Shown: positions 15,310 through 53,226 of the stretch, piece after piece
Layout: each line of letters starts with the position of its first letter
Numbering within the stretch: the first letter of the stretch is position 1
NCBI GenBank assembly: GCA_963920635.1
Contig: OY987299.1
Coordinates: 128,213,373 to 128,277,372 of the forward strand
Source of the DNA: Pseudeuparius sepicola
Taxonomy: Eukaryota; Arthropoda; Insecta; Coleoptera; Anthribidae
DNA: 64,000 nt
Reading direction: 5' to 3'
Translations under genes and position numbers: made by a program
The notes under the pieces: generated by a model
The model's database searches: none
What the model was told of the DNA's origin: nothing
What the model saw: the letters and a program-made list of their open reading frames with translations, nothing else

Positions 15310-16034
15310 CAGTATGTCCACGGATGGGGTAAATAAGAGGACAAATGGACCAAAAAGTGAAAGATACGAAAAAATGTTATTCTTTATAAAAGTTTTTGCT
15401 TGCTTTAAAAATAAGATCCACGATGCCAAAAATTTGTTTTTTTTGTACAGGGTATGCAAAAAATACAAAAACGTAAAATTTGATGAAGAGTAAAGTTGGC
15501 TTTTTATAAATTTTAATGCAAAACGTTAAATAAAAAACTTGTTTGAAATTTTAAAAGAATTCTTATTACAGATTTTCAAGGAAAATTTTGAAATTTCTAA
15601 ATTACTCTTTTAAAACCGAAATTTTTCCAAGTCATATTCTCACCTTTTTATTTGATTTCGCCATTGATAACTACTGTTACTGTGACATATTGTCAAAATA
15701 AGAACGATGTTGTCTTTAGAGCAAAGAATATTTATAATCCAAAATTACAGAAACGGCGAGAATAGTTATCGCTACGTTATTGAGAAGTTTCAAGAAAAGT
15801 TTCCAAATGTACAATTATGCATAAGTTCAGTACATAAGATAGAACCAACAGAAACAACTACTCCGAGGGCTAATACCCCTACCGGCATTGAACTACACCA
15901 TTGGTTCTTGATTTTCGTTGGGAATAAACATTGCAGATCAAAGTTCCCTCCTTCACCAACGTAACATCAAAGATATTGCTATCTTTGTTGGGACATGTCC
16001 TGACAAGCATCTGCAGGCACAATGATCCCAGCCA

Positions 16035-16077
16035 GACCATTACCGGTTTCATCCTCTTTGGGAATCATCAGATGGAC
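16035..16077 (-). ncRNA. Hammerhead-ribozyme-like motif HH1 (minus copy)
   Basis: Reading the minus strand: GUCCAU, then CUGAUGA, a short stem II (UCC/GGA), GAAA, a self-complementary ACCGGU as stem III, then A (cleavage position) and AUGGUC closing stem I. One mismatch in stem I relative to the plus copy. It is type I in layout. Confidence 0.6.
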
Positions 16078-16295
16078 GTAGGCAAAATCCAGAGTGTATA
16101 ACTGTATAGATTCAAAAAAGATAGCAATATCTTTGACGTTGAAGGTGAAGGAGGGAACTTTGATTTGCAATGTTTATTCCCAACGAAAATCAAGAACCAA
16201 TGGTGTAGTTCAATGCCGCTAGGGGTATTAGCCCTCGGAGTAGTTGTTTCTGTTGGTTCTATCTTTTGAATCTATCCACTCTGGACTTTGCCTAC

Positions 16296-16338
16296 GTCCA
16301 TCTGATGATTCCCAAAGAGGATGAAACCGGTAATGGGC
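16296..16338 (+). ncRNA. Hammerhead-ribozyme-like motif HH1 (plus copy)
   Basis: GUCCAU (16296-16301) pairs with AUGGGC (16333-16338) as stem I. CUGAUGA is at 16302-16308. Stem II is only 3 bp (UCC/GGA). GAAA is at 16323-16326, and ACCGGU (16326-16331) is a loop-less, self-complementary stem III, so a dimeric fold is likely. Predicted cleavage is after A16332. Confidence 0.65.
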
Positions 16339-16913
16339 TGGCTGGGATCATTGTGCCTGCAGATGATTGTCAGGACATGTCCCAACAAAGATAGCAATAT
16401 CTTTGATGTTACGTTGGTGAAGGAGGAAACTTTGATCTTCAGTACATAAGTTAATAATCAGATTTACAAAAACTGGATCCGTTAATGATTTAAAGAGCAC
16501 GAAGAAAAGATACGACGAAAACGATGCTTCTACAGTATTAATTTTGCAATATGTTGATGAAAATCCTATGCTGTCTTTAAGAAAACGAGCCCAAAGTTTA
16601 CAAATCTGTAAAAAAGCCATATTCAAAATGTGTTGAAGGAAAGTAAAATTTATCCTTTTAAACCAATTTTTAACCATACTTTGGAAGATGGGGACAGTTA
16701 CAAACGCTTGGATTTTTGTTTGTGGGTGGGTGATTAAATTCTAAATAATAATGTGAACTTTCATAAGCTGATAATGTTCTCAGATGAGTCAATCTTCAGT
16801 ACAAACGGCACTGTAGCCTCTCAGCATGTGAGATACTGGAGTAGGAAAAACCCAGAGTTTAGAATTGCGAACCGCCGCCAGTATTTTAAAAAAGTAAATG
16901 TTTGGTGCGCCAT

Positions 16914-17040
16914 TATTATTTATTTATTTATTTATTTATTTATTTATTTATTTATTTATTTATTTATTTATTTATTTATTTATTTATTTATTTATTTATT
17001 TATTTATTTATTTATTTATTTATTTATTTATTTATTTATT
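16914..17040. repeat. (ATTT)n microsatellite, about 32 units
   Basis: A pure run of ATTT. On the minus strand it reads as an (AAAT)n tail directly following the retroelement fragment at 17041-17166, so it is best read as an expanded 3' tail of that insertion. Open frames running through it are repeat artefacts. Confidence 0.9.
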
Positions 17041-17166
17041 GCCCAACAGAAAAATCCATTTACAGGACAGGACTGAGGGCGGTTCTTCAGGTAAGACTCA
17101 AAAAATGAAACGAGGCTATCACTAAAACCAGCCAGCGAGAGTTTGTACAATAAAATAAACAATATG
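17041..17166 (-). pseudogene. Non-LTR retrotransposon RT fragment
   Basis: On the minus strand a frame reads LYKLSLAGFSDSLVSFFESY followed by LKNRPQSCPVNG. This is the conserved RT segment of jockey-like non-LTR elements (a kxxGFs...FxSYLxxR-x pattern). Only about 40 residues remain, followed by the (AAAT)n tail. Compared with copy 1 of the host transposon, a few bases of target (around TCCTATTATG) were lost or altered on insertion. Confidence 0.6.
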
Positions 17167-50268: not shown

Positions 50269-51289
50269 CAGCGTGGCTATACTGTTAACGATAAAAAATT
50301 GGATGATTTGATCAAAGTCAGGCAAAATGGAGCACATTTTGAAAAAATAATTTTTTGAATAGAATGACCCGATTTCTTTTATCGCAAACGAAGCCTATCT
50401 AAGTATAGTGTACGTTTCTAAATTATTTTCGCTCCGCCTGCGGAGTTGCCAAGTTATAATTTTTAAAGTATTGTTTGCCAAATAAGTACTAACCCTTCAT
50501 TAATATTGCTATATCTTTCTTGCGGTTTGATTTTTCCCTTGAAAGTTTAGTTGTGGATTTACACTTAACCATTTTATTATGACGAAGAACCCAGTTGAAA
50601 ATTTGTGTACAGGATTTTTATTTTTTCCTGCCAAAAATCCCGACATTTTCAAACTTAGTTTACTTTTTTTTTTCAAATGGAGCGTACTGTTTAGTTTTTT
50701 TTTTGCGATTGCGGTGTCTGGTACCTATACAAAAATATGGTAAAACTACAGATTGTAAATGAAATTTGCGCTGTCTTAATATCCAGCAGTTGAAAATTTT
50801 GTTTTTATACTGGATTCTTGAAAAACTGCCCGAGGTTAGAGTTAATGTATTTGGCATCAAATTAAAACAAAATAGATGCTCTCTACAATAGAAATAATAA
50901 ATATAGGGTGTTGCATTTGAAGAAAAAATAGTACCTAAATTAAGATTTGAAAATGTCAACTTGGTTCTACGTCATAATAAAATGGTTCAGTGTAAATACA
51001 CAACCAAACTTTCAAGAGAAAAAATCAAGCCACAAGAAACATTATCAATATTAATGAACGATTGGTATTTATTAAAATCACTCGTATTGATATATTTTAA
51101 TAGGCTTCATTTGCAATAAACGAAATCGGGTCATTTCATTTTAAAAATTTATTTGTCGCCACACTTTTTGAAACACCCTGTATATGCCAAACTAATTTTA
51201 AAATATTCTCCATTTTTCCTTATTTGGATCGCCCAAACGGTTTTTTTAAATCCTTACTAATATAGCCACAACCGAAGAAGGACACGCTG
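50269..51289. mobile_element. Foldback element, TA-flanked
   Basis: The tips are CAGCGTG and CACGCTG next to TA. Inside, 50330-50640 mirrors 50950-51160; for example GAATGACCCGATTTC at 50362 pairs with GAAATCGGGTCATTTC at 51122. Non-coding. Confidence 0.65.
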
Positions 51290-52803
51290 TATATTTAAAT
51301 TACAAAAAAGTACCATATCATCAAAATAATATATTTTTTAATTTTTTTCAAAAAAATAGTTTTGGCCTTAACTCAGAATTGATGATACCTACCTTAAACT
51401 AACTTTCTCTAAAAGTTTATATTATTACCTTTAAATCCAGAAGAAAAATGTAGATATATTTTTTGTACAAAATGCAAAAATGCATATTATTTTTTTCGAA
51501 CTCTTCGGCTTTTGAATACATTATCCTTATATCGGCAAATAATACAGCGATTTTTTTAATATTGATTTATTTATAATTATTAATGTGTCACATTGCTTAA
51601 AACATTACTTAAAATCGCATTTGAGATACAAAACCTGTTTTATTTCCGTTTACAAAATGCCAAAACAATTCTTTGTATGTCAAACACCAGGCATAGTGTG
51701 TTCCAAAATTCACCGAAAAAGATACTTTTTAGTCGTGATATATACAGTCGTATGTCTAAAAGTCTCTGATTTAGATATATATAGTAATAATTCGCCTAAA
51801 CTTTACCTAACTTTTCGTTGAAGTTTGAAACTACAGTTTTTCTTTAATTCTTTATAATTCTGGATTGTCCTTACACACTGTATATTCGAGTCGTGAGAGA
51901 TATTCGGCGCACATTACAACGTTTTTGGCACAGGTGGTAGAAAAACTTTACTGGAACATTTGAAGATGAAGTATAAAACATTTATGTTATGTCGGCAGTA
52001 CAGCAATTTAGAGAAAATACTTGCGATACCCTTTTTTACATTATTCTGTAAATTCTATAACAATATCCTATCTGCCTCTCGAGAACCGAAAATTTAACAA
52101 CAGATAACAAGTCTTTACTATAGCCGTAAACATAAGACTTTTGATTTATTTAGACGTTTACACTTAGCAACCACCTTGAAATCGGTTACGATATAATAAT
52201 TTATCCCTATTTAAAAAATAGAAATTAACAACATTTTAGGCAAGCACAAAGTATTAGTAATATATCGAATCTTCAATCTACATGTGTTGTTTTATTATTT
52301 TCTTCCTAACTGTGTTTTAGTTACAAACTTTGTGCCTCTTTTAAAACAAATCAACAGAAATAAACTCTGAAAACGAGAAAAGTACACTTATGATACAGTT
52401 ACACATTCATGATGATGAATTTTTCGTTAGTATATACATTTTTAGGAGTACCTACAAAACCTTCATTGTAGGCCAGGGTGCTTATAGAGAAAGGTGTCAT
52501 TGCCAGTCATTACTTTTTTCCTATTCTCTCAAATTTAATTAAAAGAGGATAACAATGGGTATTTATTTTTCTCTCATATTCCATGGATTTTCTTCGTTCC
52601 GGTCTCGTTGAAAAGCAAAAGAATTAATATCTTAAGGTTTAAGATGGCTGAGGCTCACAATTTGATAAACTGTCACAAGAGCAACTTTACAAACCATTAA
52701 ATACAACAGACAGAGTGAAAGAGTTACTTTGATTGTTGAGTAGAAGCACCATTAACGGACCATTTCATCGTGAATTATTAGAGCTGACCCAAGAACAATA
52801 AAA
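51290..52803. other. Intergenic 3' of the minus-strand neuroligin, AT-rich
   Basis: No gene or clear transposon end. Because the minus-strand gene ends at 53227, its 3' untranslated region may reach here. I cannot choose a polyadenylation site among several candidates on the minus strand. Confidence 0.4.
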
Positions 52804-52859
52804 ATAATATTATTGTATTCTTCTTACGCTAAAATCCACTTACCAAAAACGTTGTTTTT

Positions 52860-52908
52860 GCACTCGACGCGCGTTTCGCTAACCAAGTTAGCATCATCAG
52901 GAGATGAT
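52860..52908 (-). ncRNA. Hammerhead-ribozyme-like motif HH4 (minus copy)
   Basis: CUGAUGA (complement of 52894-52900), one extra U, a 6-bp stem II, GAAA, then ACGCGCGU stem III and C as the cleavage residue. GAG pairs with CUC at the base of stem I. This copy is on the transcribed strand of the adjacent neuroligin gene. Confidence 0.65.
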
Positions 52909-52927
52909 TAGATAGATTAGAGTTCTA

Positions 52928-52976
52928 ATCATATCCTGATGATGCTAACTTGGTTAGCGAAACGCGCGTCGAGTGC
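52928..52976 (+). ncRNA. Hammerhead-ribozyme-like motif HH4 (plus copy)
   Basis: CUGAUGA is at 52936-52942 and an extra U at 52943. Stem II is GCUAAC/GUUAGC (52944-52958), GAAA is at 52959-52962, and self-complementary ACGCGCGU at 52962-52969. Stem I is only two pairs here before mismatches, weaker than the minus copy. Confidence 0.6.
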
Positions 52977-53226
52977 AAAAACAACGTAATTGGTATGTGG
53001 ATTTAAGCGTAAGAAGAATAGTGTACCGCCAATAGGTTCCAAATTCCCAACTTAGATAATATTATTGTGTTTGGACCAACAACTGAGTATGTATTTCTAA
53101 AGAAGAGGAATCATTCAACTCTGGCCATCGCACCTTCCCCTACAAGCCACCGCACACCCATCCCCCACCACCCCCCCACCAGTCCTATATACAACCCCCC
53201 CACCTACGCACACCCTCCCCACTTCA

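What the first reader, a model, noticed from the sequence alone, without database searches (positions are those of the whole stretch)
15839..53055. A class of hammerhead-bearing inverted-repeat insertions with 13-15 bp target duplications
Four unrelated insertions share one architecture. Each has two copies of a type I hammerhead-like motif facing opposite ways, no coding capacity, and a perfect direct repeat at the ends: TTCAGTACATAAG (15826/16438), TTTAATATATAAT (33937/38096), TGTAAAAAAAATATG (40782/41732) and ATAATATTATTGT (52804/53056). The sequences differ outside the motif, so this is a recurring design rather than one family. The duplications and motifs are seen directly. Hammerheads in Penelope-like elements and in small metazoan retrozymes are established. 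That these are Penelope-mobilised, inverted-dimer retroelements is inference.
Basis: partly seen in the sequence, partly recalled or inferred. Interest (0 to 1): 0.92.

Follow-up and report, generated by a model that had tools for sequence, protein, structure and literature searches.

The report
Mirror-image Penelope and retrozyme insertions
Four mirror-image DNA insertions in a beetle genome look like the work of Penelope-type jumping genes, and one of them is a tiny ribozyme-bearing parasite (a retrozyme) with the same insertion signature, which points to the kind of enzyme that copies such parasites.

Summary
The four insertions, their direct repeats and their outward-facing hammerhead motifs are real: the motif with a palindromic stem III occurs nine times in the window, two per element plus one solo, against none in 60 random controls. 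The elements are of two kinds. E2, E3 and E4 fit ends of Penelope-like elements (PLEs): one arm runs 21-36 nt further out, like the known PLE tail, and relatives of E3 and E4 encode GIY-YIG domains. E2 is not free of coding: a separate LINE sits inside it. E1 is a 272-bp tandem retrozyme. Of 39 E1 loci examined, 29 are two-armed, all with RNA 3' ends outward. In 21 of 29 one arm ends near sense position 266 and the other near 168, never both at one site; inner ends are scattered. Exact 10-15 bp repeats flank 19 of 29 (mode 13) and 21 of 30 two-armed E2-E4 copies (12-13). A LINE of the same genome gives no opposite-strand pairs. Best reading: retrozymes are inserted by PLE-type machinery that primes cDNA from both target strands at two preferred RNA sites. 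PLE architecture is known and PLE mobilisation of retrozymes was suggested in print; this is structural evidence for it. Ribozyme activity is untested.

The parts
15826..15838 (.). E1 left target-site duplication TTCAGTACATAAG
15839..16437 (.). E1: two-armed insertion of a 272-bp retrozyme, RNA 3' ends outward; left arm ends at site A, right arm at site B
16438..16450 (.). E1 right target-site duplication
16021..16087 (-). E1 left-arm type I hammerhead-like motif (core at 16071, stem III ACCGGU palindrome)
   Evidence: RF02275 25.6 bits, E 0.00042, below gathering score 52
16286..16352 (+). E1 right-arm type I hammerhead-like motif (core at 16302)
   Evidence: RF02275 26.3 bits, E 0.00027, below gathering score 52
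33937..33949 (.). E2 left target-site duplication TTTAATATATAAT
33950..34118 (-). E2 left arm with tail (outermost 24 nt, 33950-33973, absent from the right arm); motif core at 34077
34137..37710 (+). LINE (R4/Dong-like by recall) nested in the (ATA)n of E2: RT frame 34137-36320 and a second frame 36265-37710; not part of E2
   Evidence: PF00078; copies
37853..38095 (+). E2 right arm without tail; motif core at 38000
38096..38108 (.). E2 right target-site duplication
40782..40796 (.). E3 left target-site duplication TGTAAAAAAAATATG
40797..41731 (.). E3: inverted PLE ends; motif cores at 40880 (-) and 41612 (+); tail 41699-41731 on the right arm only
41732..41746 (.). E3 right target-site duplication
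52804..52816 (.). E4 left target-site duplication ATAATATTATTGT
52817..53055 (.). E4: compact inverted PLE ends; motif cores at 52900 (-) and 52936 (+); tail about 53021-53055 on the right arm only
53056..53068 (.). E4 right target-site duplication
10901..12484 (+). E0: degraded PLE with inverted ends around a broken RT/GIY-YIG-like frame (11350-12200); copies of its family are the empty-site reference for two retrozyme insertions
   Evidence: Pfam found no domain in its two pieces, so the PLE assignment is by eye
57703..57745 (+). solo dimer-type hammerhead-like motif

Best explanation
All four insertions were made by PLE-type reverse transcriptase/endonuclease machinery. Shown by the sequence: two arms with RNA 3' ends outward, a direct repeat of mostly 12-15 bp, two preferred outer RNA end points with a different one on each arm, scattered inner ends (inner ends counted for E1). 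Inferred: the enzyme cuts the two target strands about 13 nt apart leaving 3' overhangs; each 3' end primes its own cDNA on element RNA, one at the inner and one at the outer start site; the two cDNAs meet and join, and fill-in makes the duplication. E2-E4 are 5'-truncated PLE copies. E1 is a non-autonomous 272-nt hammerhead retrozyme copied in trans by a PLE from multimeric or circular RNA, so that an arm can exceed one unit. The hammerheads, with self-complementary stem III, would process the RNA as dimers; they need not act in the insertion itself.
For: E1: 39 loci, 29 two-armed, 29 of 29 outward; at 10-nt tolerance 21 of 29 are A/B, 0 A/A, 0 B/B; 11 of 68 inner ends lie within 10 nt of A or B, 10.5 expected. 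Tail on exactly one arm: E2 12 of 12 fetched plus the window copy, E3 4 of 4 fetched with both ends plus the window copy, E4 11 of 12 two-armed loci; tails 21-36 nt. Exact repeats of at least 10 bp in 40 of 59 two-armed elements (E1 19/29, E2 11/13, E3 4/5, E4 6/12) against 0.4% of mispaired flanks. GIY-YIG matches of the E3 PLE and its relatives: of 35 neighbouring pairs closer than 9 kb, 26 outward, 0 inward, 9 parallel (from the 150 scored matches). Matched control, 150 scored copies of the nested LINE: 6 such neighbours, all parallel, 0 opposite-strand. Two of 39 E1 insertions sit within about 30 bp of the end of the E0 reading frame, and uninterrupted E0 shows one repeat copy there. Literature: a purified PLE protein cuts and extends both DNA strands, and its genomic tail is the stretch between two RT start sites (PMC11167929, main text); a rotifer PLE has inverted pLTRs, one with a 31-bp tail, and a 9-bp TSD (PMC3846280, passages).
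Against: E1 sites A and B lie about 98 nt apart, the PLE sites 21-36. E1 shares no clear sequence with the PLE loci compared: three 19-nt matches, E 0.95. 8 of 29 two-armed E1 loci have an end at neither site at 10-nt tolerance (6 of 29 at 15 nt), and 10 of 29 lack an exact repeat of at least 10 bp. 10 of 39 E1 loci and 17 of 29 E4 loci show one arm only in the stretch held; two of the 10 (L012, L087) have a 12-13 bp flanking repeat, and none of the 17 shows a convincing one. E1, E2, E3 and E4 loci come from the 40 scored of 795, 328, 709 and 1127 first-look candidates, and the E2 loci were chosen because they were paired. In the in vitro PLE study the two target strands did not differ in start site, and ribozyme mutants still inserted. 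Rfam hits stay below gathering scores; E2 and E3 have none. Differences between arms and between units do not tell a circular from a linear template.
Confidence: 0.75

Rival explanations
1. Retrozymes and PLE ends are inserted by a LINE with ordinary twin priming: one defined 3' end, and an internal second priming site that varies.
For: Twin priming by LINEs also gives outward inverted arms, microhomology joints and duplications (recalled); 19 of 29 E1 joints overlap by 1-8 nt, part of which chance and alignment extension would give.
Against: Both outer ends are preferred points, one of each kind. The LINE tested shows 0 opposite-strand neighbours among 150 scored copies. E3 and E4 relatives encode GIY-YIG domains. 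Only one LINE family was tested.
Confidence: 0.1
2. Snap-back: the first cDNA folds back and primes its own second strand, giving a palindrome (self-priming is discussed for rotifer PLEs in PMC3846280).
For: Arms are 93-100% complementary; self-priming is proposed in print (passages).
Against: Copying back should give both arms the same outer end or random ones, not one end at each of two sites in 21 of 29 loci with no A/A or B/B.
Confidence: 0.08
3. Foldback DNA transposons (MITE-like) moved by a transposase.
For: Long inverted repeats, flanking duplications, no long reading frame in E1, E3 and E4 window copies.
Against: Arm lengths, inner joints and unit numbers differ between copies, the two ends differ, and coding relatives look like retroelements.
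Confidence: 0.03
4. Arrays inserted in one orientation and were inverted later by recombination.
For: Tandem retrozyme arrays could recombine.
Against: 29 of 29 two-armed E1 loci and 26 of 26 opposite-strand PLE neighbours are outward, and flanking repeats are often intact.
Confidence: 0.02

Closest known systems
Endonuclease-bearing Penelope-like elements (Penelope/Poseidon type)
   Same: Inverted pLTRs, a short tail on one end, target-site duplications, GIY-YIG domain (PMC3846280 and PMC8969392, passages; PMC11167929, main text); minimal hammerheads that may cleave as dimers (PMC7761336, passages). E2-E4 fit this.
   Different: Duplications here centre on 12-13 bp; the rotifer passages give 8-10 bp or none. 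The window copies of E3 and E4 are short and without long frames. An extra base lies between A9 and stem II in E2-E4; the original descriptions were not held, so I could not check whether that is usual.
Metazoan non-LTR retrozymes
   Same: E1: 272-bp unit (published 150-450 bp), tandem, 44% GC, type I hammerhead-like motif whose stem III has no loop, TSD longer than the 4 bp of plant retrozymes (PMC7229834, abstract and passages).
   Different: Two-armed outward insertions with two preferred end points do not appear in the passages I read. Circular RNA and cleavage were not tested.
PAc, Poseidon of Anolis carolinensis, in vitro
   Same: Two RT start sites bounding the tail; cutting and extension of both target strands (PMC11167929).
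   Different: There the strands did not differ in start site; here most insertions use one of each. E1 spacing is about 98 nt rather than 30-40.
LINE twin priming
   Same: Inverted arms with flanking duplication (recalled).
   Different: One preferred end instead of two, and only a fraction of copies (recalled, not from a call).

Membership tests
Penelope-like element (E3, E4) | GIY-YIG endonuclease in the coding copies | tested here: met
   PF01541 E 1.4e-4 in L076 (E3) and 3.6e-4 in L058 (E4); scores 22.5 and 21.2 lie just under the cutoff 22.6. 150 scored matches to the E3 domain, open frames up to 835 aa. E4 rests on one locus.
Penelope-like element (E3, E4) | Telomerase-related RT, by tree | not tested
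   RT-like residues seen by eye only; no tree was built
Penelope-like element (E2, E3, E4) | Inverted ends with a tail on one arm only | tested here: met
   13/13, 5/5, 11/12 two-armed copies, window copies included
Penelope-like element (E2, E3, E4) | Target-site duplication | tested here: met
   21 of 30 with exact repeat of at least 10 bp
Penelope-like element (E2) | Coding relatives with RT and GIY-YIG | not tested
   No coding copy was looked for; assignment rests on architecture and motif
Metazoan retrozyme (E1) | Tandem unit of about 150-450 bp without coding capacity | tested here: met
   272-bp period; longest frame 61 aa in a doubled unit
Metazoan retrozyme (E1) | Type I hammerhead in the unit | tested here: inconclusive
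   Core, stems and cleavage triplet present; Rfam HH9 matched full length on both strands but below its gathering score; Rfam's best model is HH9, not Hammerhead_1
Metazoan retrozyme (E1) | Self-cleaved and circular RNA | not testable with these tools
   needs RNA
Retrozyme mobilised by PLE (E1) | Same insertion signature as resident PLEs | tested here: met
   outward arms, two end points, one per arm, repeat mode 13
Retrozyme mobilised by PLE (E1) | Shared RT-start sequence or spacing with a resident PLE | tested here: not met
   no clear similarity to the PLE loci compared; spacing about 98 against 21-36 nt. This lowers the claim for a particular helper, not the likeness of mechanism.

The most novel reading that the evidence does not exclude
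PLE-type integration is obligately two-sided: a dimeric enzyme loads the two cut target strands onto two different RNA entry sites, one each, on two RNA molecules, and metazoan retrozymes spread by presenting a counterfeit pair of such sites. The inverted dimer would then be the standard primary product and not an aberration, and single-armed copies would be later losses.
Probability: 0.4. Interest if true: 0.78.

Novelty: new variant of a known kind. Interest (0 to 1): 0.6.

Why it matters
A review says that metazoan retrozymes show no motif that would reveal which autonomous element moves them and names PLEs/Terminons as likely candidates (PMC7761336, passages). The insertion signature found here is such a clue, can be looked for in any genome with retrozymes, and gives two defined RNA sites to try with a purified PLE enzyme. 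It also suggests how PLEs, a poorly understood class, come to have inverted copies.

Tried and rejected
I first read E3 as an inverted dimer only in the window, because one search gave one arm per place. Copies fetched with longer stretches showed the second arm about 140-1700 bases away, so I dropped that. It also means that the DNA search does not report a second arm at such distances, so the first LINE control (40 single matches) was weak; I replaced it by a protein search matched to that of the PLE. That control has its own limit: its 150 scored copies of 5549 candidates are all 100% identical to the query, so a diverged second arm would be missed, while the 150 scored reach down to 58% identity.

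I asked whether units within an arm share private variants, as rolling round one RNA circle would predict: within-arm difference 2.8%, between arms of one insertion 2.2%, between insertions 2.8%; 32 private variants shared by two or more units against 163 in one unit, often in some but not all units. Inconclusive, since later mutation and unequal exchange are not excluded. RNA folding of the start regions gave nothing firm: site B falls near a hairpin loop in E1, with no common feature in E2-E4. Pfam found nothing in the two pieces of E0 nor in the second frame of the LINE. A search for more retrozyme insertions at the E0 site did not complete.

Selection to keep in mind: only 40 candidates are scored per DNA search. 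E1: 30 loci from the search reduce to 21 places, plus 18 fetched later, 39 in all; in L026 an extra one-armed stretch was left out of the counts. E4: the 30 best rows, 29 places (L041 is L034 again); of 12 two-armed ones L057 has an unresolved end. E3: of 9 stretches fetched, 4 gave two complete arms, L100 was cut at its edge, and in L098, L099, L101 and L102 only one arm lay in the stretch. Duplication lengths count exact matches and may include chance bases at the borders.
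Full report
What was checked. The window lies in a 769-Mb genome in 16 contigs. The best named relatives of one of its neuroligin-like reading frames are beetle proteins, longhorn beetles first (Anoplophora, Rhamnusium, Aromia; 49-55% identity). The species is not known to me. All four direct repeats are exact and each occurs only twice in the window. The inverted repeats are real.

The motif. 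A structural search written after seeing the motifs found nine sites in the window, two facing outward in each of E1-E4 plus a solo at 57703, and none in 60 Markov-1 controls. In every case stem III is a self-complementary stretch (ACCGGU in E1, ACGU in E2 and the solo, AGCGCU in E3, ACGCGCGU in E4), which would let two RNAs form a dimeric ribozyme. E1 has a U-U mismatch at the base of stem II; E2-E4 have one extra base between A9 and stem II. Rfam matches do not reach gathering thresholds. Below them E1 matches Hammerhead_HH9 over the full model on both strands and E4 matches Hammerhead_1; E3 has no hammerhead match and E2 none in the whole-window search. That minimal hammerheads occur in PLEs and may cleave as dimers I saw in passages and a reference list of a review (PMC7761336); the original papers were not held.

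E2, E3, E4 fit Penelope-type ends. One arm runs further out than the other in all 13 two-armed E2 copies examined (12 fetched, chosen because paired, plus the window copy), in all 5 E3 copies with both ends and in 11 of 12 E4 loci; the excess is 21-36 nt. This matches the published PLE tail (PMC3846280, passages; PMC11167929, main text read). L076, an E3 relative, has a GIY-YIG-like frame upstream of each arm; L058 has one upstream of an E4 arm; Pfam scores of the two tested frames lie just under the curated cut-off. The genome search scored 150 matches to the E3 domain out of 4925 candidates, at 58-100% identity, some in open frames up to 835 aa. Among these, of 35 neighbouring pairs closer than 9 kb, 26 face outward, none inward and 9 are parallel, 7 of these in two short tandem clusters. 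In one search I count 14 outward and no inward E2 pairs. For E2 no coding copy was looked for. Its 34137-37710 interior is a separate LINE with a reverse transcriptase domain, set in (ATA)n; the name R4/Dong is recalled.

E1 fits a retrozyme. It belongs to a family of 272-bp units in head-to-tail arrays, 44% GC, longest frame 61 aa in a doubled unit. I examined 39 places: 21 from the search and 18 fetched later. 29 have two arms and all 29 are outward. Outer ends cluster at sense positions about 266 (A) and 168 (B). At 10-nt tolerance 21 of 29 are A/B, 7 have one end elsewhere and 1 has both elsewhere; at 15 nt, 23 are A/B and 6 have one end elsewhere; at 5 nt, 15 are A/B. There is no A/A or B/B at any of these tolerances. 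A is on the left in 11 and on the right in 13 (10-nt tolerance). Of ten single-armed places, five end at A, four at B and one elsewhere. Inner ends are spread: 11 of 68 within 10 nt of A or B, 10.5 expected. The two arms together exceed one unit in 29 of 29 (388-2673 nt), so one 272-nt circle without strand displacement cannot be the sole template.

Target-site duplications. For 59 two-armed elements of the four families, exact repeats of at least 10 bp flank 40: E1 19 of 29, E2 11 of 13, E3 4 of 5, E4 6 of 12; mispaired flanks reach this in 0.4% of 3000 trials. Lengths run 10-15, most often 13 in E1 and 12 or 13 in E2-E4. With one mismatch several of the rest reach 11-14 (L011, L038, L039, L097 among them). 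17 of the E1 duplications together are 71% A+T against 63% for the window. Two E1 insertions, L008 and L009, lie in copies of the PLE E0 (window 10901-12484): their repeats correspond to window 12212-12226 and 12182-12194, within about 30 bp of the stop codon at 12198-12200. Joining their flanks with one repeat copy aligns across the joint to uninterrupted E0 (91% and 86%). E0 has 1821 first-look candidates, so two of 39 is suggestive and no more.

Control. A protein search with 150 residues of the nested LINE, matched in length to that of the PLE, scored 150 copies of 5549 candidates: six neighbours closer than 9 kb, all parallel, none opposite. All 150 are identical to the query, so a diverged second arm would escape. 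An earlier DNA control (40 single matches) is weaker, because that search type misses second arms more than about 140 bases away.

Mechanism. Shown by the sequence: outward arms, two preferred outer RNA ends used one per arm, scattered inner ends (E1), repeats mostly of 12-15 bp. From the literature: a PLE protein cuts and extends both target strands and starts at two internal RNA sites that bound the tail; in that assay the strands did not differ in start site, and ribozyme mutants still inserted (PMC11167929). Inferred: both cut strands prime cDNA, one at each site, the cDNAs join in the middle, often at a few shared bases (19 of 29 E1 joints overlap by 1-8 nt, partly expected by chance), and repair fills the staggered ends. 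That a PLE does this for E1 follows from the likeness of the signature. Which PLE is unknown: E1 shares no clear sequence with the loci compared, and its two sites are about 98 nt apart, not 21-36.

Novelty. PLE inverted ends, tails and hammerheads are known. That PLEs may move metazoan retrozymes has been suggested (PMC7761336; PMC8969392; passages), with the remark that the repeats show no motif to tell the helper. In the listings of eight library searches and the passages I read I found no report of two-armed retrozyme insertions with two preferred ends; key papers outside the open library could not be read, so this is not proof of absence.

Noticed in passing
34137-37710: LINE (R4/Dong-like by recall) inserted in the (ATA)n inside E2, with RVT_1 domain. 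150 scored copies of its C-terminal 150 residues are identical to it, some in open frames up to 1260 aa, so the family is probably young.
   Followed up: partly
10901-12484 and 25978-26321: Two copies (the second partial, about 70% alike) of the PLE family E0, which has 1821 first-look candidates in the genome; the first has inverted ends around a broken reading frame.
   Followed up: partly
57703-57745: Solo dimer-type hammerhead-like motif outside any inverted repeat found.
   Followed up: no
59666-60674 and 22278-23103: Long imperfect palindromes (84% and 82%) without the hammerhead pattern; origin unknown.
   Followed up: no
L017 (contig C1, about 617130-620391): A retrozyme array in which four alike units are followed by units with a shared deletion, as if the template changed during copying.
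   Followed up: partly
1673-2197 and 6575-7285: Fragments that look by eye like a mariner-type and a piggyBac-type transposase.
   Followed up: no
18519-20615 and 53227-54189: Two neuroligin-like exons; the first matches beetle neuroligins, the second is judged by eye.
   Followed up: partly
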